64,000 bases of DNA from Thiocapsa rosea (GTDB lineage Bacteria > Pseudomonadota > Gammaproteobacteria > Chromatiales > Chromatiaceae). The position numbers were made by a program, and so were the translations under genes. Numbering within the stretch: position 1 is the first letter of the stretch; each line of letters opens with the position of its first letter. Positions 49,681-64,000 of this stretch are shown one piece after another. The notes beneath the pieces are model-generated. The model did not search any database, was not told where the DNA came from, and worked only from the letters and a program-made list of their open reading frames with translations. The stretch covers positions 372,001 to 436,000 of the forward strand of contig NZ_RBXL01000001.1 in NCBI RefSeq assembly GCF_003634315.1. Direction: 5' to 3'.

Positions 49681-50144
49681 TTGCGCTTGATGAGCTCGCG
49701 CAGAAGACTCGGGTTCGGCAGGCCGCGGACGATGAGTTCCGGATCGTCCCCGGAGGTGTAGATCTTGATGTCGCCGGCATTCAGGATGCGTTGCAGGAGG
49801 CTTTGATGGAGTCGCACCGTACGCACCGAAGACAGCTTGATCTCGGTGTAGCTCTTGCTGAGAAGACCATGGGTCCAAACCAGCTCGTCGTCGCGGATGA
49901 CGAGATGGTCGGAGCGGGTGGCCAACCACCAGATGCACAGCTGCAGCAAGGCGAGTCCGGCGACGACCAGGCCCGAGATCTTGACGATCCGCTCATCGAG
50001 CGGCTCGGGCAGTGGAACCGGGATCAATGCCGGACCCATCACGGCGAACAGGATCCCCGCCAGCAACAGGACGATCATCAATGGGGTCGAAAAAGGACGA
50101 ATTCGCAACATCGAGGGATGAGCGTCGTAATGAATCTCGGACAT
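49677..50144 (-). CDS. Bacterial PH-domain (bPH2/DUF304) membrane protein
   Basis: 155 residues from ATG 50144 (AGGAG six bases upstream). Two membrane segments (PLMIVLLLAGILFAVMGPAL and VVAGLALLQLCIWWLAT) precede a PH-like beta domain: HLVIRDDELVWTHGLLSKSY, EIKLSSVRTVRL and GDIKIYTSGDDPEL. Function is unknown. It is divergent from the AlbA_2 sensor gene. The stop codon is contributed by repeat E10. Confidence 0.82.
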   Translation of the reverse strand: MSEIHYDAHPSMLRIRPFSTPLMIVLLLAGILFAVMGPALIPVPLPEPLDERIVKISGLVVAGLALLQLCIWWLATRSDHLVIRDDELVWTHGLLSKSYTEIKLSSVRTVRLHQSLLQRILNAGDIKIYTSGDDPELIVRGLPNPSLLRELIKRN

Positions 50145-50326
50145 CGGCATCTCCTGTCTCTTTGCCTGGAGGATCGGTCGACATGTCTCGTCGCCGCGTC
50201 CCGCACGACCTGAGCACGAGATCACCCCGTGCGGGTGGGGTTACTATACCCAGAGCAGCGAGAGATTTCGCGCGATCGCATGTCGAGTTGTTTTACTTAT
50301 TTTTGAGCCGTTCCTAAGCCTCCCCC

Positions 50327-51937
50327 ATGACACCCTTCTCCTTGTTGCGGACCTCCTCGGGTCCAGTCCGCTCGCGGCTGCTTCGCGACCTCGTGTTGCT
50401 GGTGCTCCTGACCGTCGGTCTCTTGGTGGCCATCAATATCCTCTTGATCAACCTTATCAAGGAGGATCTGGCCGAAAGCCGCATCGAGGCCGCAACCGCA
50501 CTGGTTCGCGACGAGGTTCGTGGTCTCCTGGTGCCGGTCGAGCAGCAGCTCCTGATCATTCGCGACGGTCTTGTCGCCGCCGGCCTGACCCCGGCCGACG
50601 AGGGCGCCTTGAATCAACGCTTGACCCCGATCCTCGCGCACATGGGCCAGATCGCAGCCGCGATCGATGCCTCGGCCGAAGGGGCCGAGTATTTTCTGCG
50701 CCGCGACGGCGACGGTTGGATGAGCCGACTGCAGGAAGCCGGGACGGGACAGCCGGTGCGCGTCACCCGCTGGGACGCCGAGCTGCGTCCGCTGGAGACG
50801 CGCGACGAGGCAAGCGAGCACGACCCGCGCACACGCCCCTGGTTCAGCGCGGCGGCCGACCGACCCGGCACCCTGCTCTGGACCCGACCCTATGTCTTCG
50901 AGTCGACCCAAGTCCCCGGACTCACGGCATCTTTGGGTTGGATGCAGTCGGGACAGCTGCGGGTGACCGCCTTGGACGTCACCATCCAGACCATCGTCGA
51001 GAGCATCGAGCGACATGCCGTCGCCGCCGAAGGACGCGGTTTTCTCTTCAGCGGTGCGGGCGGCGTCTATGTTCCCGAGGACGACGCACGAACGCCGGAT
51101 CCGGAACGGGCCAGCGGCTTCTTCTCGGCCCATCTCACACCCGGCGGCCCCTTGGCGTTCGACGCGGTGTCGGCCTGGAACCTGGCGGGCCGACCGTCAC
51201 AGGGTTTGATCCGTTTCAACAGCTCGGGGGTTCAGTGGTGGGGCGGCTTCAGACCACTGACCGAGGACCTCTCGGGCGGCTGGTCCGGCGTTGTCCTTCC
51301 TGTCTCCGAGACCCTCGCGATCCTCCAGAGCCGGTGGCATATCGTCGCCCTCACCGTGCTCGGCATCCTGATGGCCAGCCTGGCCATGACGACGCTCGTG
51401 GTGCGCAAGTACCATCGCCAACTGCGCGACATGCCCAAGCTCAGCATCGACCGGCGTCGCGCCGAGGATGATCTGCGCGAGCTGGTCGCCTCGGGCGAAA
51501 GCACGCATCTGGAGTTCAAATCCACCATGCGCATGAACCTGCACAGCAAGGTCACGGGTCGGGAGATCGAGATGGCTTGGCTGAAGGCCGTCGCGGCCTT
51601 CCTGAATTCGGAAGGCGGGATTCTGTTGCTCGGGGTATCGGACAGCGGAGCTGTACTGGGCTTGGAGGCCGACAAGTTCGAGAACGAGGACAAGTGCAGA
51701 CTGCACTTCAAAAACCTGCTGAACCACCATATCGGGGCCGAGTATGCGCGGTTCGTGCGCTTCGATCTCTATGATTTGGACGATCTGCGCGTGGGAGCGG
51801 TCGAGTGCGAGCGTGCGGACACGCCGGCCTTTCTGCACGATGACAAGAATCGAGAGTTGTTCATCATCCGCAACGGTCCGTCGAACATCGAGCTGCCGAT
51901 CAGCCGTGCGCTCAAATACATACGAGGTCGGTTCTAG
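50327..51937 (+). CDS. Membrane sensor with cytoplasmic Schlafen AlbA_2 domain
   Basis: 536 residues. TM1 (LLRDLVLLVLLTVGLLVAINILL, ~20-42), a ~300-residue extracytoplasmic region with cache-like features (DPRTRPWFSAAADRPGTLLW, RVTALDVTIQTIVESI), TM2 (IVALTVLGILMASLAMTTLVV, ~340-360), a short charged linker, then an AlbA_2 (Schlafen-type) domain: GESTHLEFKSTMR, WLKAVAAFLNSEGGILLLGVSD and FLHDDKNRELFIIRNG at the end. AlbA_2 domains bind nucleic acids or nucleotides and usually occur in cytoplasmic regulators. There is no kinase or GGDEF part. Signal and output are unknown. Confidence 0.85.
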   Translation: MTPFSLLRTSSGPVRSRLLRDLVLLVLLTVGLLVAINILLINLIKEDLAESRIEAATALVRDEVRGLLVPVEQQLLIIRDGLVAAGLTPADEGALNQRLTPILAHMGQIAAAIDASAEGAEYFLRRDGDGWMSRLQEAGTGQPVRVTRWDAELRPLETRDEASEHDPRTRPWFSAAADRPGTLLWTRPYVFESTQVPGLTASLGWMQSGQLRVTALDVTIQTIVESIERHAVAAEGRGFLFSGAGGVYVPEDDARTPDPERASGFFSAHLTPGGPLAFDAVSAWNLAGRPSQGLIRFNSSGVQWWGGFRPLTEDLSGGWSGVVLPVSETLAILQSRWHIVALTVLGILMASLAMTTLVVRKYHRQLRDMPKLSIDRRRAEDDLRELVASGESTHLEFKSTMRMNLHSKVTGREIEMAWLKAVAAFLNSEGGILLLGVSDSGAVLGLEADKFENEDKCRLHFKNLLNHHIGAEYARFVRFDLYDLDDLRVGAVECERADTPAFLHDDKNRELFIIRNGPSNIELPISRALKYIRGRF

Positions 51938-51938
51938 C

Positions 51939-52025
51939 TTGAACCGCGTTTTGGGAGGGTATGCGCGGGGTGTCGCTTGTGTCGCTGTCGGGACAACTTT
52001 GGAATGCCGGAGCGACGCGGTTCAA
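51939..52025 (-). repeat. TIR element E11 (GTC type, compensated arm change)
   Basis: 87 bp, ends TTGAACCGCGTT and GACGCGGTTCAA (one mismatch). It begins one base after the stop of the AlbA_2 gene. Interior is the least conserved of the set. Confidence 0.8.
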
Positions 52026-52132
52026 CGATTCTCAAAAAAGATCTTTGAACTGGGTCTCGGCCACGTTGCCGGTCTAGGCGAGAGTGATCGCGCCCCGACC
52101 GGCTTTTTATCGCACCGGACGCAGTTCGGAGA

Positions 52133-52294
52133 TTAGAGCTGCCGGATCTGGGTCGGGAAGGCCGTTGCGGTCCCGCTGTCCTTGTTCTTGTCCTTGGTAC
52201 AACCTTCGCCGGCTTGGGCGGTCATGAGGGAGCCGGCGACCAGCATGGCACCAAGGAGAACTGCGGTGGCGAGGGTGGAGAGACGCATGGACAT
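52133..52294 (-). CDS. Small secreted protein (~53 aa)
   Basis: ATG 52294 with GAGGA nine bases upstream; ATG 52300 is also in frame. A clear signal peptide (LSTLATAVLLGAMLVAGSLM) ends at AQA. The mature part is only about 25 residues: one Cys, a KDKNKD stretch and a C-terminal FPTQIRQL. A T-rich hairpin-like sequence lies beyond the stop. No family is recognised. Confidence 0.6.
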   Translation of the reverse strand: MSMRLSTLATAVLLGAMLVAGSLMTAQAGEGCTKDKNKDSGTATAFPTQIRQL

Positions 52295-52568
52295 GGGCAT
52301 AAATCCTCGATCGGGTCAGGTTGGGAAGGTGGGATTCGGCGAGCGGTCGGCTCGCTTCTCCCGCCTAACGTAAGCTAGGGGCATCCGAGTCAAGCACAAG
52401 CCTCGACCGCACGCGTTGCGATGCGAAATGTCAATCGAGTTTTCAGGGAAATCGGTGCGCCGCCCGCCGTTCGACCCGTCCACGCAGGTCCGGACCCGAG
52501 AGTCGAGACCGGTCGAACGCAATGTGCCGTACGTCCGATAAGGCTCGCTCCGGATCGGCTTAGAATGC

Positions 52569-53729
52569 ATGCCTTGCAACGATAGAAAACCAGACGAGCC
52601 ATCGCCGGGGCCTTCGGATATGAAGAAGAAGGATGTCGCCTTGCCTGACCCCATCGAGCTGCGGGGATTCAATCGAACCCTGGCGGAGATCGAGTGGCTC
52701 TTGTTGGTGCTCGTGCTGGTCTATCTGGTGCTGCCGGACGAACCCGTCGAGCAAACCTTGGGCATCGCCGCCGCGATCGCGGTCTTCGCCGTCTTCATCC
52801 TGGGCTTTCGTTACCTGAACCTGTTCACACTACCGGCACGCTGGAAGCTCACGATCGAAACCTGGGCCATGTTGGCCTTCACGGCCTTCGTGGTTTGGCA
52901 CACGGGCAAGGTCGACAGCCCGCTGATCAGCCTCTTCCTGCTGGTCATCGTCTTCAGCGCCCTCACGCTCGGCAAGCTGATTACACTCCTCGAGGTGGCC
53001 CTCATCGCCAGCTTCTATCTCTTCGCCGCTTACACGGCCGCGGGAACCGAGCTCTTCGCCTATTCGACCTTCAGCCGCCTGATGCTGCTGTTTGCGCCCG
53101 TCGCCTTGGTCGCCTATGTCACCTCGCTGATCGCCTCGGACATGAGTTTTTCGCGCACCTTCGTGCAGCGCCTCTCGGAGACCGACGAACTCACCGGGCT
53201 GCCGAACATGCGCGCCTTCTCGGTCGCCCTCGCGCGCCATAAGCAGGCCGCCGTTCTGCGCGACCGCCCCTTCGGCGTCATGATGGTGGACGCGGATAAC
53301 CTCAAAGAGGTTAACGACCGCTATGGCCACAGCGTCGGCAACCAGGTCATCCGCGCCGTCGCCGAGGGGATCCGTCGGAGCATCCGCAGCGCGGATCTGG
53401 TCGCGCGCTACGGCGGCGACGAGTTCATCCTGCTCCTTCCGGATACCACGGAGCAGGCAGCGCACGAGGCCGGCGAGCGGATACGCATGATGGTCGCCAG
53501 CACCCTGATCGACACCGGAAAGGACGCGGTGACCACAACCGTGAGCATCGGCTATGCCACCTATCCGAGCATGGCCACGGAGGTCGACGACCTCATGGTG
53601 CGCGCCGACGAGGCGCTCTATGCGAGCAAACGCGCCGGACGCAACCGCATCTTCGCCTTCAGCGAGATCGCCGAGATGGCCCGTGCCCCGCATGACGATC
53701 CGGATACCCGTCGAGAGCCTTTCGGCTAA
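52569..53729 (+). CDS. Membrane-bound diguanylate cyclase (GGDEF)
   Basis: Up to 386 residues; ATG 52620 is an alternative. Six hydrophobic segments (residues ~40-200) are followed by a GGDEF domain: DELTGLPNMRAF, VMMVDADNLKEVNDRYGHSVG, and the active site RYGGDEF. The RSAD sequence nine residues before GGDEF fits the inhibitory I-site, suggesting feedback control by c-di-GMP. No EAL domain. The TAA stop lies within repeat E12. Confidence 0.92.
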   Translation: MPCNDRKPDEPSPGPSDMKKKDVALPDPIELRGFNRTLAEIEWLLLVLVLVYLVLPDEPVEQTLGIAAAIAVFAVFILGFRYLNLFTLPARWKLTIETWAMLAFTAFVVWHTGKVDSPLISLFLLVIVFSALTLGKLITLLEVALIASFYLFAAYTAAGTELFAYSTFSRLMLLFAPVALVAYVTSLIASDMSFSRTFVQRLSETDELTGLPNMRAFSVALARHKQAAVLRDRPFGVMMVDADNLKEVNDRYGHSVGNQVIRAVAEGIRRSIRSADLVARYGGDEFILLLPDTTEQAAHEAGERIRMMVASTLIDTGKDAVTTTVSIGYATYPSMATEVDDLMVRADEALYASKRAGRNRIFAFSEIAEMARAPHDDPDTRREPFG

Positions 53730-53812
53730 ACCGCGCCGACTCCATCCGCCGTCAAGTCGGCCGGGGCCGATCCCATCCAAGAACATCACATCACGCGCTG
53801 AGCGCGGTTTAA
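53726..53812 (+). repeat. TIR element E12 (GCC type)
   Basis: 87 bp, ends CTAAACCGCGCC and AGCGCGGTTTAA. Core GCCGGGGCCGATCCCATCC as in E5/E9. It joins two genes: the left end holds the GGDEF stop codon and the right end lies six bases before the uvrA ATG, where no Shine-Dalgarno is visible. Confidence 0.88.
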
Positions 53813-53818
53813 ACGCCA

Positions 53819-56800
53819 ATGCCAGAACCAAGTCTGCGACGGGATCTGATCCGTCTGCGCGGGGTGCGCCAGAACAACCTCAAGGACATCGATCTCGACC
53901 TGCCGCTCAACGCGCTGATCGTCGTGACCGGGGTCTCGGGCTCGGGCAAGTCCTCGCTCGCCTTCGACACACTCTATGCCGAGGGCCAGCGGCGCTATGT
54001 CGAGACCTTCTCGCCCTATGCGCGTCAGTTCCTCGATCGGATGGATCGACCCGCCGCCGACCGCATCGAGGGCATTCCGCCCGCGATCGCCATCGACCAG
54101 ACCAATCCGGTGCGCACCTCGCGCTCGACCGTCGGCACCATGACGGAGCTGAACGATCACCTGAAGCTCCTCTTTGCGCGCACTGCCCGGCTGTTCTGCC
54201 GCGGGTGCGGTCGCGAGGTTCGGCGCGATACGCCCGAGGGGATTTGGGAGTATCTGGTCGGACTCCCCGAGGCCGCTGACCGAAATGTCTCGATCGCCTT
54301 CGGCGTGCCGGTGCCCGCGTCCCTGGATGTCGAGGCAGTCAAAACACTGCTCGCCCAGCAGGGCTATGTTCGGATCCTATCCGAGGACGCGACCGCCATC
54401 GAGGTGATTCAAGACCGCCTGCGTCTGACCGCCGAGCACCGCGGTCGCGCCATCGAGGCGCTGGAGACCGCGCTGGCCCGCGGTCACGGACGCATTCGGG
54501 TCTACCCGCTCGACGCCGATCGCCAACCCGGCCCGCCCTGGCGCTTCTCGGCCGATCTGCACTGCGCCGACTGCGACATCGCCTATGCGGATCCGACACC
54601 GAGCCGCTTCTCCTTCAACTCGCCCGTCGGCGCCTGTCCGACCTGTCGGGGTTTCGGACGCACCATCGGGATCGACTGGTCGCTCGTCGTCCCGGACCCG
54701 TCCAAATCGCTGCTCGAAGGCGCGATCAAACCCATCCAGTCCGACAGCTATTCCGAGATCCAGGAAGACCTGATGGGCTTCGCGCACCGCCGCGGCATCC
54801 CGACCGATCTGCCCTGGCGCGACCTCACCGATGCCGACCGCGCCTGGATCATCGAGGGCGACGGCGAGTGGGAGGCCGGCGTCTGGTACGGGTTGCGCCG
54901 CTTCTTCGCCTGGCTCGAAGGGCGCAGCTACAAGATGCATGTGCGCGTGCTGCTCTCGCGCTACCGCGCCTACGATGTCTGCACCGCCTGCGACGGGGCC
55001 AGACTCACCGACGAGGCGCTGGACTGGCGGGTCGGGGACAAGGCGCTCGCCGATCAGGCGCTCATGCATCAAGCCCCGGCGCCCGAGCGCCGCTTCCGGC
55101 ACGGACGCATCGGCATGGACAAGGCGACCTGGCAGGCACTCCCCGGTCTGTGCATCCACGACCTGATGCGTCTGCCCTTGAGCGCCTGTCGCGACTTCTG
55201 CGACGCGCTGCCGCTGGACCCGGCGTTGGATCTGCTGATCGACGGCATCCGCTCGCGCCTGCGCTATCTCTGCGAGGTCGGACTCGGCTATCTGACCCTG
55301 GACCGCCAATCGCGCACCCTCTCGGGCGGCGAGGTGCAACGCATCAACCTGACCACGGCGCTCGGCAGCACACTGGTCAACGCGCTGTTCGTCTTGGACG
55401 AGCCCAGCATCGGTCTGCACCCGCGCGACATGGACCGGATCGTGGCCATCCTTCGGCGCCTGCGCGACCAGGGCAACTCGCTGGTGGTCGTCGAGCACGA
55501 CCCGCAGGTGATGTGGGCCGCCGACCGGATCATCGACATCGGCCCCGGACCCGGCGAGCAAGGCGGGCGCATCCTCTTCGAGGGGCCGCCGAAGGACCTG
55601 ATCCGCACGGCCGGATCACTCACCGGCGACTATCTGGCGGGTCGGCGACAGGTCGCCGCCGGCCACCCGGCCAATCCGCCGGCGTCCGACGGACCGCGGA
55701 TCCACATCCGCGGCGCCCGCGCCCACAACCTCAAAGGGATCGATGTCGAGATCCCGCTGCACCGCCTGACGGTGATCACGGGCGTCTCGGGATCCGGCAA
55801 GTCGACCCTGGTGCAGGAGGTCATCTACAACGCACTCTGCCAGCTCAAAGGCCATCCCGACGAGCCGCCGGGCGAGCACGCCGGGATCGACGGAGACAGC
55901 CTGATCGCCGATGTCGTGCTGCTCGATCAATCCAGCATCGGGCGGACCTCGCGCTCGAACCCGGCGAGCTATGTCGGCGCGCTCGACGTGCTGCGCAAAC
56001 GCTTCGCCGCCCTGCCGCTGGCAAAGGAGCGCGGCTACACCGCCGGCACCTTCAGCTTCAACAGCGGCACCGGACGCTGTCCGACCTGCGGCGGCAACGG
56101 CTACGAGCATCTGGAGATGCAGTTCCTCGCCGATGTCTATCTGCGCTGTCCGGACTGCAACGGCCGGCGCTATCGCGCGCCGGTGCTGGAGGTCGAGATC
56201 GGCGCCCGGCCCGGCGAGCCCGGACGCTCGATCGCCGACGTGCTGGAGATGACGGCGACCGAGGCACTTGTCTGCTTCGCCGAGGACGCCGATCTGAAAC
56301 GGGCGCTGGAGCCCTTGCTCGCGGTCGGGCTCGGCTATCTGCGGCTCGGCCAGCCGGTTCCCACACTCTCGGGCGGCGAGGCCCAGCGGCTCAAGCTCGC
56401 CGGTCATCTCGCCAAATCAGGCCGGGGCAAGGCGCGCGACGGCGGTCTGCTCTTCCTGCTCGACGAGCCGACGACAGGGCTGCACTTCGCCGATGTCGCG
56501 GTCCTGCTGAACGCCTTCCGGCGCCTGCTCGACAAGGGGCATTCGCTCCTCGTCATCGAGCACAATCTCGACCTGATCGGCGCGGCGGATTGGCTGATCG
56601 ACCTGGGACCCGAAGGCGGCGAGGCGGGCGGCGAGCTGGTCTGCTGCGGCACGCCCGAGCAGGTCGCGGCACATGCGACGAGACATACGGGGCGGGCCTT
56701 GGCCGAGCATCTGCGGATCCTAAACGCCCAGATGGTTTTTGCCACGGAAACACACGGAAAGACACGGAACGAAGAAGCATTTTCGGGAGGATCCTCTCAA

Positions 56801-59461
56801 CTGGCCTGGTCGGTGGAAGACAGTCCTTTTCCGTGTCTTCCGTGTCCTTCCGTGGCAACAGATTTGCCGCCTGCCGCCCCGATCCAGGCGGGGATCCAGA
56901 TCATCCACGCCCGCGAGCACAACCTCAAGGATCTGTCCCTCACGATCGCGCGCGACAGCTTCACCGTCATCACCGGCGTCTCGGGCAGCGGCAAGAGCAC
57001 GCTCGCCTTCGACATCCTTTTTGCCGAGGGCCAGCGTCGGTTCTTGGAGTCGCTGAACGCCTACGCCCGCCAGTTCGTCCAGCCCGCCGCGCGGCCGGAT
57101 GTCGATGCCGTGCTCGGCATCCCACCCACCGTCGCCATCGAGCAGCGCACCAGTCGCGGCGGCGCCAAGAGCACGGTCGGCACACTCACCGAGATCCACC
57201 ACTATCTGCGTCTGCTCTACGTCCGGCTCGGGATCCAGACCTGCCCGACCTGCGCCGTGCCGATCGAGCCGATGAGCCGAGACGCCATCCTAGAGCGGAT
57301 CGGGCGCGATCACCGGGACAAAACCGTCGCACTCATGGCGCCGTTGGTGATCGCGCGCAAGGGTATCTACAAAGAGTTGGCCGACTGGGCCGTCCGGCAT
57401 GGCTGGTTCGTCCTGCGGGTCGACGACGAACCGGTCGAGACTCGCGACTGGCCGCGGCTCGACCGCTATCGCGAGCACAGCATCGACCTGCCGGTCGGGG
57501 AGGTCGCGATCCGACCCGATCAGGAGAACGCGCTGCTCACACTCCTGGACCAGGCCCTGGATCTCGGCAAGGGCGCGATCCGCGTCGTGGATGTCGTCGA
57601 CGGGACCTGGGGCACCGAGACGCCCTACTCGACCCGACGCGCCTGCCCGAGCTGCGGGATTGCACTGCCCGAGCCCGACCCGCGGCTCTTCAGCTTCAAC
57701 TCGAAGCAGGGCTGGTGCGGGGACTGCTTCGGCACCGGACTGGAGCTTCGCGACTTCGACGGGGAGCAGTCGGGCGAAGAGGATCAATGGCAGGAGGCCG
57801 ACGCGGTCGAGTCTCAGCCCTGCCCGAGCTGTCGCGGCGCACGTCTCAACCCGCAGGCGCTCGCGGTGCGCTTTCGCGAGCGCTCCATCGCGGATCTCTC
57901 GGCTTTGACCGTGGAGCAGGCGGGGGCCTTCGTCGCCGGCCTGCACCTGGACACGCGCGAGACCGCCATCGCCCACGACCTGCTTGCCGAGGTGCGCGAG
58001 CGCCTCGCCTTTCTCGCCGAGGTCGGGCTCGGCTATCTGACCCTGGATCGGGCCGCGCCCACGCTCTCCGGCGGCGAGGCCCAGCGCATCCGGCTCGCCG
58101 CCCAGCTCGGCTCCAACCTGCGCGGTGTCTGCTACATCCTCGATGAGCCGACCATCGGCCTGCATCCGCGCGACAACCGCTTGCTCCTGAACGGACTCGA
58201 CCGGCTCCAGGCCAAGGGCAACACCATCCTGGTCGTCGAGCACGACGAGGAGACCATCCGTCGCGCCGACGAGGTCATCGACCTGGGACCGGGCGCCGGC
58301 TCGCGTGGCGGCGAGATCATCGCCCGCGGCACCGCGCTGGAGCTGATGCAGGATCCGGCCTCCGTCACCGGGCGCTGTCTCGCCCGCGCGCGGGGACGTT
58401 CGCGGCCGGTCCGCGCGACCGGCAAGGGCGACGACGGGCTCCTGATCTCGGGTGCACGCCGGCACAACCTTCAGGACATTGATGTCCGCGTCCCGCTCGC
58501 CCGGCTGGTCTGCATCACCGGCGTCTCGGGATCGGGCAAGTCGACACTGGTGCGCGAGGTCCTGGTCAAGAGCCTGCGCAACCTGCTCACGCAGGAGGGC
58601 AAGACAGGCTCGCGACCCGTCAAAGGCACCCTGATCGGTTGCAAACGCCTGGCCGGATGGCAGGGCCTCGCGCGCGTCCTGGAGGTCGACCAGACGCCGA
58701 TCGGCAAGACACCGCGCTCCTGCCCGGCCACCTATGTCGGCTTCTGGGACCCGATCCGCCGCCTCTTCGCCGCCACCTCGGAGGCCCGCATCCTCGGCTG
58801 GGGACCGGCACGCTTCTCCTTCAACACCAGCGGCGGGCGCTGCAGCGCCTGCGAGGGACAGGGGGTGCAAAAGCTGGAGATGAGCTTCCTGCCGGATGTC
58901 CGCATGACCTGCGAGGTCTGCGGCGGCAGCCGTTTCGATCGCGAGACCCGCGAGGTGCGCTACCAGGGATTCGACATCGGTCAGGTCCTGCGCTTGAGCG
59001 TCGACGAGGCGGTGGATGTCTTTCGCGCACACCGCGCCATTCACCACCCGCTCGCCCTGCTCCGGGATGTCGGACTCGGCTATTTGCAGCTCGGTCAGCC
59101 CAGCCCCACACTCTCGGGCGGCGAGGCCCAGCGCATCAAGCTGGTCACCGAGCTGACCAAGGCCCGATCGACGACGAATCAAGGTGCAGCCCGCCCGACG
59201 CTCTATGTCCTCGACGAGCCGACCGTCGGCCTGCACATGGCAGACGTCGAACGCCTACTCAACGTCCTGCATCGACTTGTCGACGCCGGTCACTCGGTCC
59301 TGGTCATCGAGCACAACGTCGATCTTATGACCGAAGCAGATTGGATCATCGACCTAGGCCCGGAAGCAGGCGACGCAGGCGGTCGGGTCGTCGCCGAAGG
59401 CACGCCGGAAACAGTCGCGAAGGCCGGCGACTTCCCGACCGCCCAAGCACTCCGGCGCTGA
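53819..59461 (+). CDS. uvrA: Double-length UvrA: two fused excinuclease ABC subunit A units
   Basis: 1880 residues, twice the usual ~940. Unit 1 (~1-970) has NBD1 Walker [24 protein letters not shown] signature [15 protein letters not shown]2 Walker [15 protein letters not shown] and zinc-finger CPTCGGNG...CPDC. Unit 2 (~1018-1880) repeats the plan with [32 protein letters not shown], a second [22 protein letters not shown]...CEVC and [12 protein letters not shown]. All four ATPase sites look intact. UvrA finds DNA damage as a dimer; this fusion could be a covalent dimer. The linker (~974-1014) is encoded by a palindromic repeat. The usual uvrA is not in the window. Confidence 0.93.
56739..56859. 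repeat. Palindromic repeat inserted in frame in the UvrA linker
   Basis: Left arm TTGCCACGGAAACACACGGA (continuing GACACGGAA) and right arm ending TTCCGTGGCAA pair over about 30 bases with few mismatches. The 121 bp encode about 40 residues joining the two UvrA units without a stop. Similar CCACGGAA...TTCCGTGG palindromes are usually intergenic in proteobacteria. Confidence 0.8.
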
Positions 59462-59503
59462 TCGTCCGTCAGGCCCCAACGAACGATTCAAAAACAACCA
59501 AAA

Positions 59504-59618
59504 CGTAGGATGGGTAGAGCGCAGCGAAACCCATCTTTTCCACGCCGCGCCGCGCCGCCACTCGGATTGGGTGTCTGAGCGGGGAGGATGGGTTTCGCTG
59601 CGCTCTACCCATCCTACG
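59504..59618. repeat. Palindromic element with perfect 32-bp arms
   Basis: 59504-59535 and 59587-59618 are exact inverted repeats (CGTAGGATGGGTAGAGCGCA... and its complement) around a 51-bp GC-rich loop. The sequence type is a common dispersed repeat in gammaproteobacteria. It lies in the gap between uvrA and the curlin-repeat cluster (convergent genes) and may act as a terminator. Confidence 0.9.
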
Positions 59619-59629
59619 CGCAACACCAT

Positions 59630-60064
59630 TCAGCGCATCCGCTCAAGCATCCGCGTCTTGAATGCATCCTGAGTCGACACGGACGTCTCCCGCACCTCAT
59701 CGACACCTCGCCGGGTCGCGGGAAACCGAGAGCTGACGCCGTCCCGGCTCGAAGACCGCTCGAAGCGTTCCACCTGCGATGTCGCACGCGGTCCATCGGT
59801 GCCTGAGACCGCAGCCGCGCTATCGCGTTGAATGGTGACATCGGTGTTGCGGCCGTCCTGTGTGACGATCGTCTGCCCATCGCGATAACGTGTGACCCGC
59901 GACTCGACCGGACGGGTTCCACCGCTCTGTTGGATCACCGCCGTCGACCCGCCGGATGTGTGGGTCTGCGCAACGGCACATCCCGTCACGACGCTCATCG
60001 ATAAAACAGCCAGGCCAAGCAACCCCGAGCCCATGCCTCTCGCACTGATTCGTTTGATCTTCAT
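59630..60064 (-). CDS. Lipoprotein with curlin-like Gln/Asn motifs, last gene of the curlin-repeat cluster
   Basis: 144 residues from ATG 60064 (GGGAG eight bases upstream). A lipoprotein signal ends in VVTGC. The mature part contains VIQQSGG, IVTQDGRNTDVTIQRD and similar Q-x-G/N strands like those of its neighbours, then an Arg/Ser-rich tail. It could anchor or nucleate fibres of the three upstream repeat proteins at the outer membrane, but this is inference. No CsgG/E/F similarity is seen. Confidence 0.65.
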   Translation of the reverse strand: MKIKRISARGMGSGLLGLAVLSMSVVTGCAVAQTHTSGGSTAVIQQSGGTRPVESRVTRYRDGQTIVTQDGRNTDVTIQRDSAAAVSGTDGPRATSQVERFERSSSRDGVSSRFPATRRGVDEVRETSVSTQDAFKTRMLERMR

Positions 60065-60171
60065 CGGTCTCTCCCACGGGCGTGTCAACCAGAAGGGACA
60101 GGCGCCAACCCGAAGCGCCGACCTCGGTCGTGTGCCCCGAGCGCCAGCGATCCGGCGCACCGCGTGTTGTG

Positions 60172-60483
60172 CTATCGCGCCCGCGCGGCGAGCGCCGAGC
60201 GTCCTTGACCCGGGTGTGTGCCATTGGCCTTCGCCCCGCCCGCTTGCCCCTTCCCGCTCCCTCGGTCGTTGCAGCCGCCCTGCCTGGTCGTGTTGATATT
60301 GACCTTGCCGTCTTGATAAGTGGCATTGTCGTTGATGTCTCCGCATTGGCGGGTGTGATTGATGTTGACCTTACCCGACTGAACGGACGTATTGGTATTG
60401 TCCTGCGCCAAGACCGGACCGCACAGGCAAGCCGACAGCATGACCGCGACAACGGAGATTGGTCTGGAGATTGAATTCGACAT
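60172..60483 (-). CDS. Secreted curlin-repeat protein 3
   Basis: 103 residues. Signal peptide to about residue 26, then four consecutive 11-residue units (30-73) of pattern x-N-x-T-x-Q-x-G-x-x-N: TNTSVQSGKVN, INHTRQCGDIN, DNATYQDGKVN and a decayed INTTRQGGCND. The C-terminus is Gly/Arg/Ala-rich. The pattern equals the half-repeat of CsgA/CsgB curlin, which forms stacked beta strands in amyloid fibres. AAGG lies about nine bases before the ATG. Confidence 0.8.
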   Translation of the reverse strand: MSNSISRPISVVAVMLSACLCGPVLAQDNTNTSVQSGKVNINHTRQCGDINDNATYQDGKVNINTTRQGGCNDRGSGKGQAGGAKANGTHPGQGRSALAARAR

Positions 60484-60588
60484 TCATTTGACCTTATTCG
60501 GTTGAAAAACAGGCTCGGCCGATTCACCGCAGCAAAGGTCGACCGCCATCCCGGCCGATGCGATTCCGCCAGTCGCATGATCCTCGGT

Positions 60589-60667
60589 GTAGGGTGGACG
60601 AGCGAGAGCGAAGTCCACCGAGCCCCGCGCCGACGCTGGCGGACTGCGCTACGCTTGTTCACCCTAC
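60589..60667. repeat. Imperfect palindromic element of the GTAGGGTGGA type
   Basis: GTAGGGTGGACGAGCGAGAG... pairs imperfectly with ...GCTTGTTCACCCTAC. It belongs to the same broad class as 59504-59618 and lies between curlin-repeat genes 2 and 3. Confidence 0.7.
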
Positions 60668-60734
60668 CGCTGCGATCATCGACGTGTCAGGGTTTATGAG
60701 CGACGCCTATCGCGAACAGCGACCACACCCAAGA

Positions 60735-61028
60735 CTAATCGCCATCCCCGGAAATCCGATATCGCGGATGTTGATATTGATACTGCCGAACCTTGTTGTT
60801 GTTCACATCACCGGTTTGGATCGTTGTCGTCCGATTCACTTTTCCGGCCTGCACCGTTCGACTAAAGTTCATCTCGCAATCCTGCTGAACATCCGATTGA
60901 TTGACACGGTCATTCTGGATATTGACGCTGTAACAGGGACCCTGCGTCCGGTCGCGCCCCGCATCGGCCTGCGCCAAGGGAACAAGCGAAAACAGTAGGA
61001 TACCAACCGACAAGATCGAGGTTTTCAT
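60735..61028 (-). CDS. Secreted curlin-repeat protein 2
   Basis: 97 residues. Signal peptide to about residue 22 (ends AQA). Five consecutive 11-residue units (33-87): YSVNIQNDRVN, QSDVQQDCEMN, FSRTVQAGKVN, RTTTIQTGDVN and NNKVRQYQYQH. The Gln at position 6 is kept in all five and the Asn at position 11 in four. Two Cys (one before unit 1, one in unit 2) could form a disulfide. Probably an amyloid-type fibre subunit or nucleator. Confidence 0.78.
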   Translation of the reverse strand: MKTSILSVGILLFSLVPLAQADAGRDRTQGPCYSVNIQNDRVNQSDVQQDCEMNFSRTVQAGKVNRTTTIQTGDVNNNKVRQYQYQHPRYRISGDGD

Positions 61029-61102
61029 ATGCTGACACCATTCGTTGAGTAGACCCGGCCGCCGACACCCGCGCCGGGGTGTCGGCTCGACAGCCCTTCA
61101 GA

Positions 61103-61414
61103 TTAACGATCGCGCTGCTTGGAACTGCGGTCGGACATAGGCCCTTGGCTGGTCTCGTTGTAATTGATCCTGCCGAACTGACCGGTCTGGTTCCAATTCT
61201 CGTTCCCGCGCTGCTTGGTACGGTTCGCGTTGTCGTTCCCTTCCTGATAGGTCGCGTTGTCGTTGTACGCACCACGCTGAGAGGTATCGTTGGTATTGAT
61301 GCGACCCTCCTGGATCGTGGTATTGAAGTTGGTCTGTGCGGATGCGACCCCGCCGAGCGTGACAAGGATGGCAGCAAGAGCGGCGGGAAGGAGCTTGGAG
61401 GTCGTGTTGGTCAT
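61103..61414 (-). CDS. Secreted curlin-repeat protein 1, the most regular
   Basis: 103 residues. Signal peptide ends VASA-Q at about 26. Six perfectly phased 11-residue units (30-95): FNTTIQEGRIN, TNDTSQRGAYN, DNATYQEGNDN, ANRTKQRGNEN, WNQTGQFGRIN and a final YNETSQGPMSD. Consensus x-N-x-T-x-Q-x-G-x-x-N, as in curlin half-repeats. A short charged tail ends the protein. First gene of the cluster; GAGG precedes the ATG. Likely the major fibre subunit. Confidence 0.82.
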   Translation of the reverse strand: MTNTTSKLLPAALAAILVTLGGVASAQTNFNTTIQEGRINTNDTSQRGAYNDNATYQEGNDNANRTKQRGNENWNQTGQFGRINYNETSQGPMSDRSSKQRDR

Positions 61415-61891
61415 TGGTTTAGCCTCTTCGGTTGATCAAGCATATCGGACGGGTTGAGTGGATTCGGCGAGATTCGGAACACTGTCGTATCTCCCGGCGA
61501 ATCGGCCCTGCCTTCACGTCAGGGGTTTATGGCGACGAGATCTGCTGTATCCCGTCGTTGGATGCAGAATACGTAAGACAGCCTGAACGAGACCTGAACG
61601 GAAAGAACGTGCGGCGTGAGTTTTTCGGTCGACGGCAAAACGAATAGGCGGAAGGGATCCAGTGCCTCAATGACAACCTTGTCATCTCGCCGTCAGCGTC
61701 CTGACTGGAGACATCGACCACCATGCACTCCGGTGGTCTCCCCCGCGGGCTACGCCTCTCGGAGACAACGGGGAGCGTGACGGTTCGGCAGTCACCTTGC
61801 AGACCCCCGACCCCGCCCCCCTCTATCGAGGGGAAGTGGCCGAAATGATTTGCTCGTCAGCATCGACTCGGGAGCCCATCGAGACAACGAC
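61415..61891. other. Divergent intergenic region, curlin-repeat cluster to efflux genes
   Basis: About 480 bp holding the promoters of both transcription units. One direct repeat (61583-61599) looks like an operator. No gene is supported; the short frames here lack ribosome-binding sites. Confidence 0.5.
61583..61599. promoter_or_regulatory. Direct repeat CTGAAC-N5-CTGAAC, possible response-regulator site
   Basis: Two identical hexamers 11 bases apart, one helical turn, as in OmpR/PmrA-type binding sites. It lies about 290 bases before the efflux genes and 170 bases before the curlin-repeat cluster. Which operon it serves is unknown. Confidence 0.35.
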
Positions 61892-63664
61892 ATGCAGAGA
61901 ACCCCGGCCTACCTCCCGATCCTGCTCGCGACCGTGCTGTCTGTCCTGACCACGACCGAGGTTTCCGCCCACGAAGGCCACGACCACGGCCCTCCGTTGC
62001 CGGCACCGGTCACCGCGACCCTGGCGCCGCGGGTCAGCGCCGAGTCCGCGGATCTGGAGCTGGTTGCCGTACTCGAAGACGGGACACTGACGGTCTATCT
62101 GGATGAGTTTGCGACCAACCGCCCGATCGAGGACGCTGTCCTGCAGGTCGAGAGCGGGGCTTGGCAGGGCACCGCGACCCATGAGGGCGAGGGCGTCTAC
62201 CGACTCGATCCGGGTCCGCTGGCGGAGCCGGGCCGCCATGACCTGATCTTTACGATCGAGTCGCCGACGCTGGCGGATCTGCTGTTGGGGGCCCTGGAGG
62301 TGCCGGACGATCCAGGCATCGATGCCCAGCCTCCCGCCGGATCGCCTGCCTGGTATGACTCCGTTCCGCTGCTGCAAGGGGCGGTCGTGCTGCTGGCCCT
62401 GTGCAGTCTGGCCCTGCTGCTGTGGCGCGACCACCGGGACCGCGGCGGACCAGGCGAGCCATCAGGCCAAAGGACCCCGCCGAAGGGTTCACCCTCCTCG
62501 ACCACGGCCGCGATGATGACGCTGGCGCTCCTCGCAACGACGCTGCTGGCGCTGGACGCCGTCGGACCCGTCCGCGCCCACGAGGGACACGACCATGGCA
62601 CACCCGATCCGGCGCCCGGTCCGTCGGCCGCCGGCCAGGCCGCCGCGCGCCTGCCGGACGGTACCCTGTTCGTGCCGAAACCGACCCAACGGCTGCTCGG
62701 CATCCGCACCGCTCCCGCCGAGCCCGGCGAGTGGCCGGACACCTTCACCCTGTCCGGCCATGTGATCCCGGATCCGAACGCCAGTGCGCTGGTGCAGGCG
62801 CCGCTGCGGGGCCGCATCGAGCTGCCGGAGGATGGTCTGCCGCTGCTCGGAGCCTCGATCCGAGAGGGTCAGGTGCTGGCCTATCTGGTGCCGATTCTCG
62901 ACGCGGTGGACAGCACCGATCTGCAGGCGGAGATGGCCGAACTCGACGGACGCATCGAGAACCTCGCCCGCAACCTGATCCGCCTGCGCCAGCTCGGCGA
63001 CAACGCCCCGCGCCAGGAGCTGGAAGAGACCGAGACCGAGCACATGAGCCTGACCGCCCGTCGCCGGGCGATCGCCGACAGCTTCAGCGCGCGGATGCCG
63101 CTGACCGCCGCGGTCGGCGGCGTGCTGGCCTTGCGCAACGCCTCGCCGGGCCAGATCGTGGCCGGCGGCGAGACCTTGTTTACGGTCGTGGACCCGCAAC
63201 GTCTGCTCGTCGAGGCCCTGCTCTACGACACCGACCATGCGACCCACTTCACCTCGGCCAGCGCCACCACGACCGAAGGCCGACTGCTGCGCCTGACACC
63301 GATCGGCAGCGGCTACGAGCTGCGCGGCCATGCCCTGCCGATTCAATTCCGGATCGAGCCAGACCCGCCGGGGGAGAAGCCCGGTACCTCCCGGCCACCC
63401 GACCAGCTCGTCGTGCGCCAACCATTGACGGTGGTCGCCACCATGTTCCACGGCAGCACGGGTCTGCGCATCCCGAGCGCCGCGGTCCAGCGCGGCCCGG
63501 ACGGCGCCGAGCTGGTCTGGGTGCATGTCCAGCCCGAGCACTTCCGCCCGCAGCGCGTCCGGGTCCGGGCGCTGGGTGCCGGCGACAGCGTGGTGACCGC
63601 CGGGCTCGCAGCCGGGGACCGGGTGGTCTCCGACGGCGCCGCGCTGCTCGGTCAGGTGCGCTGA
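61892..63664 (+). CDS. RND efflux periplasmic adaptor, apparently a fusion of two secreted His-rich proteins
   Basis: 590 residues from ATG 61892; an in-frame TTG at 61850 is less likely. First part: signal peptide, metal-binding HEGHDHG, a beta-rich domain and a membrane segment (VVLLALCSLALLLW). Then a second signal-like helix (MMTLALLATTLLALDAVGPVRA) followed by HEGHDHG again, and a HlyD/CusB-type adaptor: LSGHVIPDPNASALVQAPLRG, a coiled-coil hairpin (DLQAEMAELDGRIENLARNL) and barrel domains. Probably exports metal ions with the pump encoded 9 bases downstream. Confidence 0.85.
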   Translation: MQRTPAYLPILLATVLSVLTTTEVSAHEGHDHGPPLPAPVTATLAPRVSAESADLELVAVLEDGTLTVYLDEFATNRPIEDAVLQVESGAWQGTATHEGEGVYRLDPGPLAEPGRHDLIFTIESPTLADLLLGALEVPDDPGIDAQPPAGSPAWYDSVPLLQGAVVLLALCSLALLLWRDHRDRGGPGEPSGQRTPPKGSPSSTTAAMMTLALLATTLLALDAVGPVRAHEGHDHGTPDPAPGPSAAGQAAARLPDGTLFVPKPTQRLLGIRTAPAEPGEWPDTFTLSGHVIPDPNASALVQAPLRGRIELPEDGLPLLGASIREGQVLAYLVPILDAVDSTDLQAEMAELDGRIENLARNLIRLRQLGDNAPRQELEETETEHMSLTARRRAIADSFSARMPLTAAVGGVLALRNASPGQIVAGGETLFTVVDPQRLLVEALLYDTDHATHFTSASATTTEGRLLRLTPIGSGYELRGHALPIQFRIEPDPPGEKPGTSRPPDQLVVRQPLTVVATMFHGSTGLRIPSAAVQRGPDGAELVWVHVQPEHFRPQRVRVRALGAGDSVVTAGLAAGDRVVSDGAALLGQVR

Positions 63665-63673
63665 GGCCCGCCC

Positions 63674-64000
63674 GTGTTCAGACAGATCATCCAAACCAGT
63701 CTGCGGCAACGGCTGCTGGTCCTGGCCGCGGCCCTTGTGCTGATCGGTTACGGCAGCTACCAGGCGCTCGGCCTGCCGATCGACGTCTTCCCGGCGCTGG
63801 ACAAGCCGACGGTCACCCTGATGACCGAGGCCGAGGGCATGGCGCCGGAAGAGGTCGAGCAACTGGTGACCTTTCCGATCGAGGCAGCGGTCAAGGGTCT
63901 GCCCGGCGTGACGCGGGTGCGCTCGGTGTCCGGCATCGGGCTGTCGATCGTCTATGTCGAGTTCGACTGGGGCAGCGACCTCTACCGCAATCGCCAGCAG
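63674..64000 (+). CDS. RND efflux pump, CzcA/CusA-like (3' truncated by window edge)
   Basis: GTG start nine bases after the adaptor stop; the first 109 residues are visible. FRQIIQTSLRQRLLVLAAAL and GYGSYQALGLPIDVFPALDK, then EEVEQLVTFPIEAAVKGLPGV and SGIGLSIVYVEFDWG, match the TM1 and porter start of heavy-metal RND pumps rather than the drug type. Partner of the adaptor upstream. Metal specificity cannot be judged from this part. Confidence 0.88.
   Translation, partial: MFRQIIQTSLRQRLLVLAAALVLIGYGSYQALGLPIDVFPALDKPTVTLMTEAEGMAPEEVEQLVTFPIEAAVKGLPGVTRVRSVSGIGLSIVYVEFDWGSDLYRNRQQ

What the first reader, a model, noticed from the sequence alone, without database searches (positions are those of the whole stretch)
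59630..61414. Minimal curlin-repeat (amyloid-type) gene cluster
Three consecutive small secreted proteins consist almost only of tandem 11-residue units x-N-x-T-x-Q-x-G-x-x-N (six, five and four units), starting near residue 30 in each. A lipoprotein with related Q-x-G-N strands follows on the same strand. This is the half-repeat of CsgA/CsgB. The proteins are shorter than curli subunits and no csgE/F/G/D homologue is in view. It may be a compact fibre or adhesion system with its own lipoprotein anchor.
Basis: partly seen in the sequence, partly recalled or inferred. Interest (0 to 1): 0.85.

Follow-up and report, generated by a model that had tools for sequence, protein, structure and literature searches.

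The report
Curli-like mini-protein cluster without CsgG
A purple sulfur bacterium carries a conserved four-gene cluster of tiny, apparently exported proteins built from curli-type repeats, with a partner lipoprotein and a shared promoter motif but without the pore that curli fibres need, so it may build a curli-like envelope filament by another route.

Summary
The repeats are real. Three small proteins with signal-like N-termini (A six units, B five, the first degenerate, C four) are followed by a lipoprotein-like protein, D. The order is A-B-C-D in 11 of the 16 loci compared and A-B-D-E in the other 5, E being a curlin-repeat passenger on an autotransporter barrel. The repeats are distant relatives of curlin: profiles of B and A find the curlin chain 8c50 at E 1.4e-17 and 5.1e-5, and one syntenic A passes Pfam Curlin_rpt. 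The window proteins themselves match no Pfam family. A core position that in curlin is hydrophobic, Ser or Thr is Asn in 88 of 94 counted A units. The genome has no CsgG match. All 11 A-B-C-D loci carry a PhoP-box-like repeat and -10 before A; the 5 others do not. Best reading: a regulated envelope module of mini-curlins assembling without CsgG. Fibres and export route are inferred. AlphaFold gave six strands but no confident solenoid, and Foldseek no match. Ser/Thr-core curlins outside csg operons are already in print (PMC10192328), so: a new variant of a known kind.

The parts
61103..61414 (-). gene A: 103 aa, signal-like N-terminus, six 11-residue units N-x-N-x-T-x-Q-x-G-x-x, basic tail
   Evidence: dN/dS 0.17-0.21 against three Thiocapsa orthologs
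60735..61028 (-). gene B: 97 aa, five looser units with a more curlin-like core, Cys pair present in 16 of 16 orthologs aligned
   Evidence: dN/dS 0.07-0.10 against three Thiocapsa orthologs
60172..60483 (-). gene C: 103 aa, four units like those of A, Cys47 and Cys71 present in 11 of 11 orthologs aligned
   Evidence: dN/dS 0.35-0.40 against three Thiocapsa orthologs
59630..60064 (-). gene D: 144 aa, lipobox-like signal, conserved core around VTR-x-RDG and STDITIQR; a homologue in 16 of 16 loci
   Evidence: no Pfam family for the window protein; dN/dS 0.25-0.32 against two orthologs
61583..61599 (-). direct repeat GTTCAG-N5-GTTCAG upstream of A, PhoP-box-like
   Evidence: the only copy with 11 or more of 12 matches in both strands of the window
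61566..61571 (-). putative -10 hexamer TATTCT, 11 nt after the direct repeat
   Evidence: same spacing in 11 of 11 A-B-C-D loci
59504..59618 (.). 32-nt perfect inverted repeat just after the stop of D (51 nt between the arms); may be a terminator or a repeated extragenic palindrome

Best explanation
The cluster is a module, probably switched on by an OmpR/PhoP-type response regulator, that exports through Sec a set of very short curlin-type beta-solenoid subunits. A and C have an all-polar core (Asn-Asn-Thr-Gln ladders); B has a more curlin-like core and one conserved Cys pair, and could be the seed or cap. They stack end to end into a thin filament or layer in the cell envelope or at the surface, and the lipoprotein D holds or chaperones them at a membrane. 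No CsgG pore is used; passage through the outer membrane, if it happens, would need another route such as type II secretion. In a sister branch C is missing and an autotransporter that displays curlin repeats (E) is present, which would be a membrane-anchored nucleator. Shown here: the genes, the repeats, curlin kinship of B and A, the conserved order, the conserved promoter motif, absence of CsgG. Inferred: export, solenoid fold, stacking, location, the roles of D and E, and that a PhoP-type protein binds the motif.
For: Order A-B-C-D in 11 loci and A-B-D-E in 5, no exception among the 16 compared. B profile to curlin 8c50 E 1.4e-17, A profile 5.1e-5, in both cases the best row among 177635 distinct PDB sequences. 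The syntenic A of genome G017 passes PF07012 with 32 bits (cut-off 20.7), and its first core position reads I, A, T, G, V, I, as in curlin; E of Thiocystis minor passes PF07012 with 30.4 bits. E follows D in 5 loci, and in the family set the 4 genomes with E (E 1e-30 or better) all have A. Inward columns of A are more conserved than outward strand columns and arcs: 0.97 against 0.85 and 0.76. The box plus -10 occurs once before A in each of 11 A-B-C-D loci and nowhere else in 261257 bases of the 16 loci. A response regulator and kinase, best NCBIfam rows PhoP and PhoQ, lie just upstream of A in L023. GspD over its cut-off in 13 of 15 carriers.
Against: No window protein reaches a Pfam cut-off, and PF07012 finds nothing in the own genome even at E 10. 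C alone is not significantly curlin-like (8c50 E 4.5; hhalign 4.8%), and its best NCBIfam row is another family, below cut-off. The five AlphaFold models of A have mean pLDDT 71.7, 58.4, 52.9, 50.7 and 41.9; Foldseek finds no PDB match at E 0.001, the top rows being fatty-acid-binding proteins and Affimers, not curlin. The gap B-C is 251 nt, so one transcript is not certain (gaps A-B 74, C-D 107). The A-B-D-E loci lack the promoter motif. No data on expression, location or fibres. Conserved Cys pairs fit folding in the periplasm as well as export. The module is rare: 9 of 210 family genomes.
Confidence: 0.5

Rival explanations
1. The proteins are soluble periplasmic mini-solenoids that do not polymerise: curlin-derived repeats reused as an envelope-stress factor under PhoP-type control, with D as a membrane partner.
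For: No CsgG in the own genome; conserved Cys pairs in B and C suggest oxidative folding in the periplasm; very short chains; a PhoP-box-like motif hints at an envelope response.
Against: Three co-kept paralogous subunits with repeat ends look made for stacking (inference); 5 loci add a curlin-repeat autotransporter (four of the five E proteins were scanned against Pfam).
Confidence: 0.3
2. A reduced remnant of a curli system that has lost csgG and is decaying.
For: CsgG-domain proteins occur in 40 of 146 family genomes and in none of the 6 carriers among them.
Against: dN/dS 0.07-0.40 within Thiocapsa, invariant order with D in 16 of 16 loci, a conserved promoter motif in 11, and a well-supported split of the two architectures (99.8/100).
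Confidence: 0.05
3. The Asn/Thr face is a binding surface (for ice, mineral, sulfur or sugar) and not a fibre core.
For: Regular Asn and Thr ladders; of the 11 named loci 5 are Chromatiaceae and 4 are filed as Thioalkalivibrio, groups that I recall as sulfur oxidisers.
Against: In the curlin register these positions point inward (PMC10192328, section 6), and B has Ser, Ala, Asn, Val or Thr there. No direct test.
Confidence: 0.1

Closest known systems
Curli subunits CsgA/CsgB and the Curlin_rpt family (PF07012; structure 8c50)
   Same: 11-residue half-repeat N-x-x-x-x-x-Q-x-G-x-x, near-identical half-repeats, signal-like N-terminus, paralogous subunits side by side; B and A profiles match 8c50
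   Different: only 4 to 6 half-repeats; Asn at the first core position of A and C; Cys pairs in B and C; no CsgG in the own genome; a partner D of no known family; window proteins below the Pfam cut-off
Ser/Thr-core CsgA-like proteins outside csg operons (Sinorhizobium fredii A0A249PTX6, reported in PMC10192328)
   Same: hydrophilic core and no csg operon
   Different: the core is Ser/Thr there and Asn/Thr here; whether those genes have partner genes was not looked at
Autotransporters (PF03797)
   Same: E of the A-B-D-E loci has this barrel
   Different: short curlin-repeat passenger; no E homologue at E 1e-30 in the window genome, only a 24%-identity match at 9.8e-5

Membership tests
Curlin repeat (PF07012) | score over the Pfam gathering cut-off | tested here: not met
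   No window protein matches; own genome 0 hits at E 10. Of the 12 A rows none matches PF07012 and of the 12 B rows 2 do, best E 0.014. One further syntenic A ortholog, in G017, passes with 32 against 20.7 bits
Curlin repeat (PF07012) | tandem N-$-Psi1-$-Psi2-$-Q-X-G-X-X with Psi one of A, I, V, L, F, S, T (PMC10192328 section 6) | tested here: inconclusive
   Psi2 fits (T 64, S 5, A 1 of 70 units); Psi1 is Asn in 88 of 94 counted A units of 16 loci, outside the stated set; the six exceptions are all in G017
Curlin repeat (PF07012) | left-handed beta-solenoid of stacked arches | tested here: inconclusive
   six strands on the six units, but no Foldseek match at E 0.001
Curli biogenesis system (csg) | CsgG secretion pore in the genome | tested here: not met
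   0 matches in the own genome; the same search rings in 4 of 14 control genomes
Curli biogenesis system (csg) | CsgD, CsgE, CsgF | not tested
   no genome search was made with these families
Functional amyloid | cross-beta fibres that bind amyloid dyes | not testable with these tools
   needs purified protein
PhoP-type regulon | two (T/G)GTTTA hexamers as a direct repeat with a 5-nt spacer (PMC3335776, passages) | tested here: inconclusive
   CGTTCA-N5-CGTTCA in the window: spacing fits, one base of each half-site differs beyond the first; no regulator was sought in the own genome

The most novel reading that the evidence does not exclude
A second, CsgG-independent assembly pathway for curlin-type fibres: regulated mini-curlins with an all-polar Asn/Thr core, a dedicated lipoprotein and, in one branch, an autotransporter that displays curlin repeats as a surface-anchored nucleator.
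Probability: 0.3. Interest if true: 0.82.

Novelty: new variant of a known kind. Interest (0 to 1): 0.62.

Why it matters
Known curli subunits travel with the CsgG pore in nearly all genomes surveyed (98% in PMC10192328), and most have a hydrophobic core. A conserved, apparently regulated cluster that keeps the repeat, lacks the pore and has an Asn/Thr core would test whether either is needed for curlin-type assembly, and offers very short natural units for the study of fibre nucleation.

Tried and rejected
Chance repeat: rejected by shuffles. Pseudogene or decayed curli: disfavoured by dN/dS and synteny. One antisense frame (rc1) also shows low dN/dS, 0.09-0.58, so dN/dS alone does not pick the frame; signal-like segments, repeats and homology lie in the sense frame. 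D as a curlin-like strand protein: no support. A known family for D: no Pfam row for the window protein, and one row for one of 12 members at E 0.014; best PDB row E 1.4. RNA families in 50000-64000: none. Sigma-70 scan of 59400-61900: 0 promoter-like sites, 3 terminator-like sites against 1.9 expected. Plasmid collection: no match to A.

CsgG: co-absence is not statistically strong, since 106 of 146 family genomes lack a match anyway. Of 13 module-bearing genomes, 10 have no match and 3 MAGs (G146, G147, G152) have weak ones of 27-49 bits on contigs other than the module's; the curli genome G064 has 273 bits. G153, G269, G540, G519 and G521 were not searched for CsgG under those handles (G153 and G540 appear to be the genome of L016; G519 appears to be the same record as G151, which was searched).

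Literature: searches listed no paper whose title or abstract start describes such a cluster; I judged from the listings, and the library is open-access only.

Rows dropped: units without N at position 1 or Q at position 7 are not counted (70 of 72 expected; 94 of 96). G064, G515 and G024 matched the queries but are left out of carrier counts: G064 and G024 have strong CsgG, G515 shows curlin-like proteins by eye. Only 12 of the 16 orthologs went into the AlphaFold alignments. L019 and L020 are nearly identical and four of the 16 loci are close Thiocapsa relatives, so the 16 are not independent. The box was defined on the window and then tested on the other loci.

Full report
What is there. On the minus strand of the window, between a long UvrA-type gene and an HlyD-family gene, both on the plus strand, lie four ORFs: A (61103-61414), B (60735-61028), C (60172-60483) and D (59630-60064). 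Gaps are 74, 251 and 107 nt. A, B and C have a hydrophobic N-terminal segment and then 11-residue units; the period is far above shuffles. D is a lipoprotein-like protein of unrelated sequence.

Conservation. A scan of genome contigs with A gave 11 named loci: Thiocapsa roseopersicina, Thiocapsa sp. KS1 and a Thiocapsa MAG, four MAGs filed as Thioalkalivibrio, two as Competibacteraceae, one as Chromatiaceae, and Thiocystis minor. The order on one strand is A-B-C-D in 11 and A-B-D-E in 5. A tree of A plus B separates the five A-B-D-E loci with support 99.8/100. In the longer loci the neighbouring genes differ between genera, judged by eye from ORF lists; the Thiocapsa loci share the efflux neighbour. 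In the family set held, A occurs in 9 of 210 genomes with G024 left out, and in a class-wide sample in 2 of 369, the own genome included and G515 left out.

Curlin kinship. The window proteins match no Pfam family; NCBIfam gives CsgB and CsgA rows far under cut-off, and for C a better but also sub-threshold row to another family. Profiles do better: B finds curlin chain 8c50 at 1.4e-17 and A at 5.1e-5, the best PDB row in each case. C does not (E 4.5; hhalign 4.8%) but is a paralog of A (hhalign 99.8%). A against four curlin-type proteins of two other genomes gives 83%. In genome G017 the syntenic A passes Curlin_rpt with 32 bits. E of Thiocystis minor combines Curlin_rpt (30.4 bits) with an autotransporter barrel at 9.1e-33; three further E proteins have the barrel, with curlin scores of 20.2, 14.4 and 19.2 bits under the cut-off of 20.7; the fifth was not scanned.

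What differs from curlin. By PMC10192328 (section 6; passages) the inward residues of each half-repeat are N, Psi1, Psi2 and Q, with Psi hydrophobic, Ser or Thr. In A Psi1 is Asn in 88 of 94 counted units of 16 loci; all six exceptions are in G017, where it reads I, A, T, G, V, I. Psi2 is Thr 64, Ser 5, Ala 1 of 70. Inward columns are the most conserved (0.97 against 0.85 and 0.76). So the same syntenic protein exists with a curlin-like and with an Asn core. The paper also reports CsgA-like sequences with a Ser/Thr core outside csg operons, and 2% of CsgA-bearing genomes without CsgG, so a polar core and a missing pore are each in print. Of PMC3521004, PMC12019908 and PMC3335776 I saw passages only.

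CsgG. No match in the own genome, 6.1 Mb in two contigs, 100% complete. In the family 40 of 146 genomes have a CsgG-domain match, none of the six module carriers among them. Three carrier MAGs outside that set have weak CsgG-domain matches.

Promoter. DNA before A is well conserved among four Thiocapsa loci. It holds GTTCAG-N5-GTTCAG, then 11 nt, then a hexamer TA(N3)T. With at least 10 of 12 matches and that hexamer the motif occurs 11 times in both strands of the 16 loci (261257 bases): once before A in each A-B-C-D locus and nowhere else; none of the five A-B-D-E loci has it. The spacing is that of the PhoP box (hexamer repeat, 5 nt apart). In L023 a response regulator and kinase whose best NCBIfam rows are PhoP (215 bits, cut-off 336) and PhoQ (196.6, cut-off 497) lie just upstream of A; both are under the cut-offs, so the names are leads.

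Structure. AlphaFold for A (12 sequences) gives six strands on the six units, with pLDDT 78-88 in the repeat blocks of the best model, but only one of five models has a mean above 60, and Foldseek against PDB finds nothing at E 0.001; the top rows are fatty-acid-binding proteins and Affimers, which I know as antiparallel folds. I take this as undecided. The Cys pair of B sits at positions 1 and 20 of one 22-residue repeat, and that of C in arcs of neighbouring repeats; the second fits a solenoid better than a flat meander (inference; no coordinates were at hand). D gave a poor model.

Mechanism. Shown: ORFs with low dN/dS within Thiocapsa (0.07-0.40), a conserved module, curlin kinship of A and B, a conserved promoter motif, no CsgG match in the own genome. 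Inferred: Sec export, solenoid folding, stacking into a filament, D as membrane partner, E as anchored nucleator in the sister branch, PhoP-type control. GspD over its cut-off is present in 13 of 15 carriers, so type II secretion is available but untested.

Verdict. A real, conserved curlin-type module without CsgG, for which the searches made listed no description; a new variant of a known kind.

Noticed in passing
window 53819-59458 +: One 1880-aa reading frame with UvrA interaction and DNA-binding domains and several ATP-binding stretches, apparently two UvrA copies fused in tandem.
   Followed up: no
window 59504-59618 and 60589-60667: A 32-nt perfect inverted repeat after D, and in the B-C gap an inverted pair of GTAGGGTGGACGAGCG-like sequences (2 matches against 0.6 expected), which look like repeated extragenic palindromes.
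   Followed up: partly
L054 3-1013 (genome G017): A frame that looks by eye like a GspE-type secretion ATPase ends upstream of A in this genome.
   Followed up: no
window 61415-61565: The leader of about 150 nt between the putative -10 and A is highly conserved in four Thiocapsa loci, which could hide a regulatory element.
   Followed up: no
L025 1932-3401; also in L053, L054, L052, L073: A compact autotransporter with a short curlin-repeat passenger; no description seen in the listings.
   Followed up: partly
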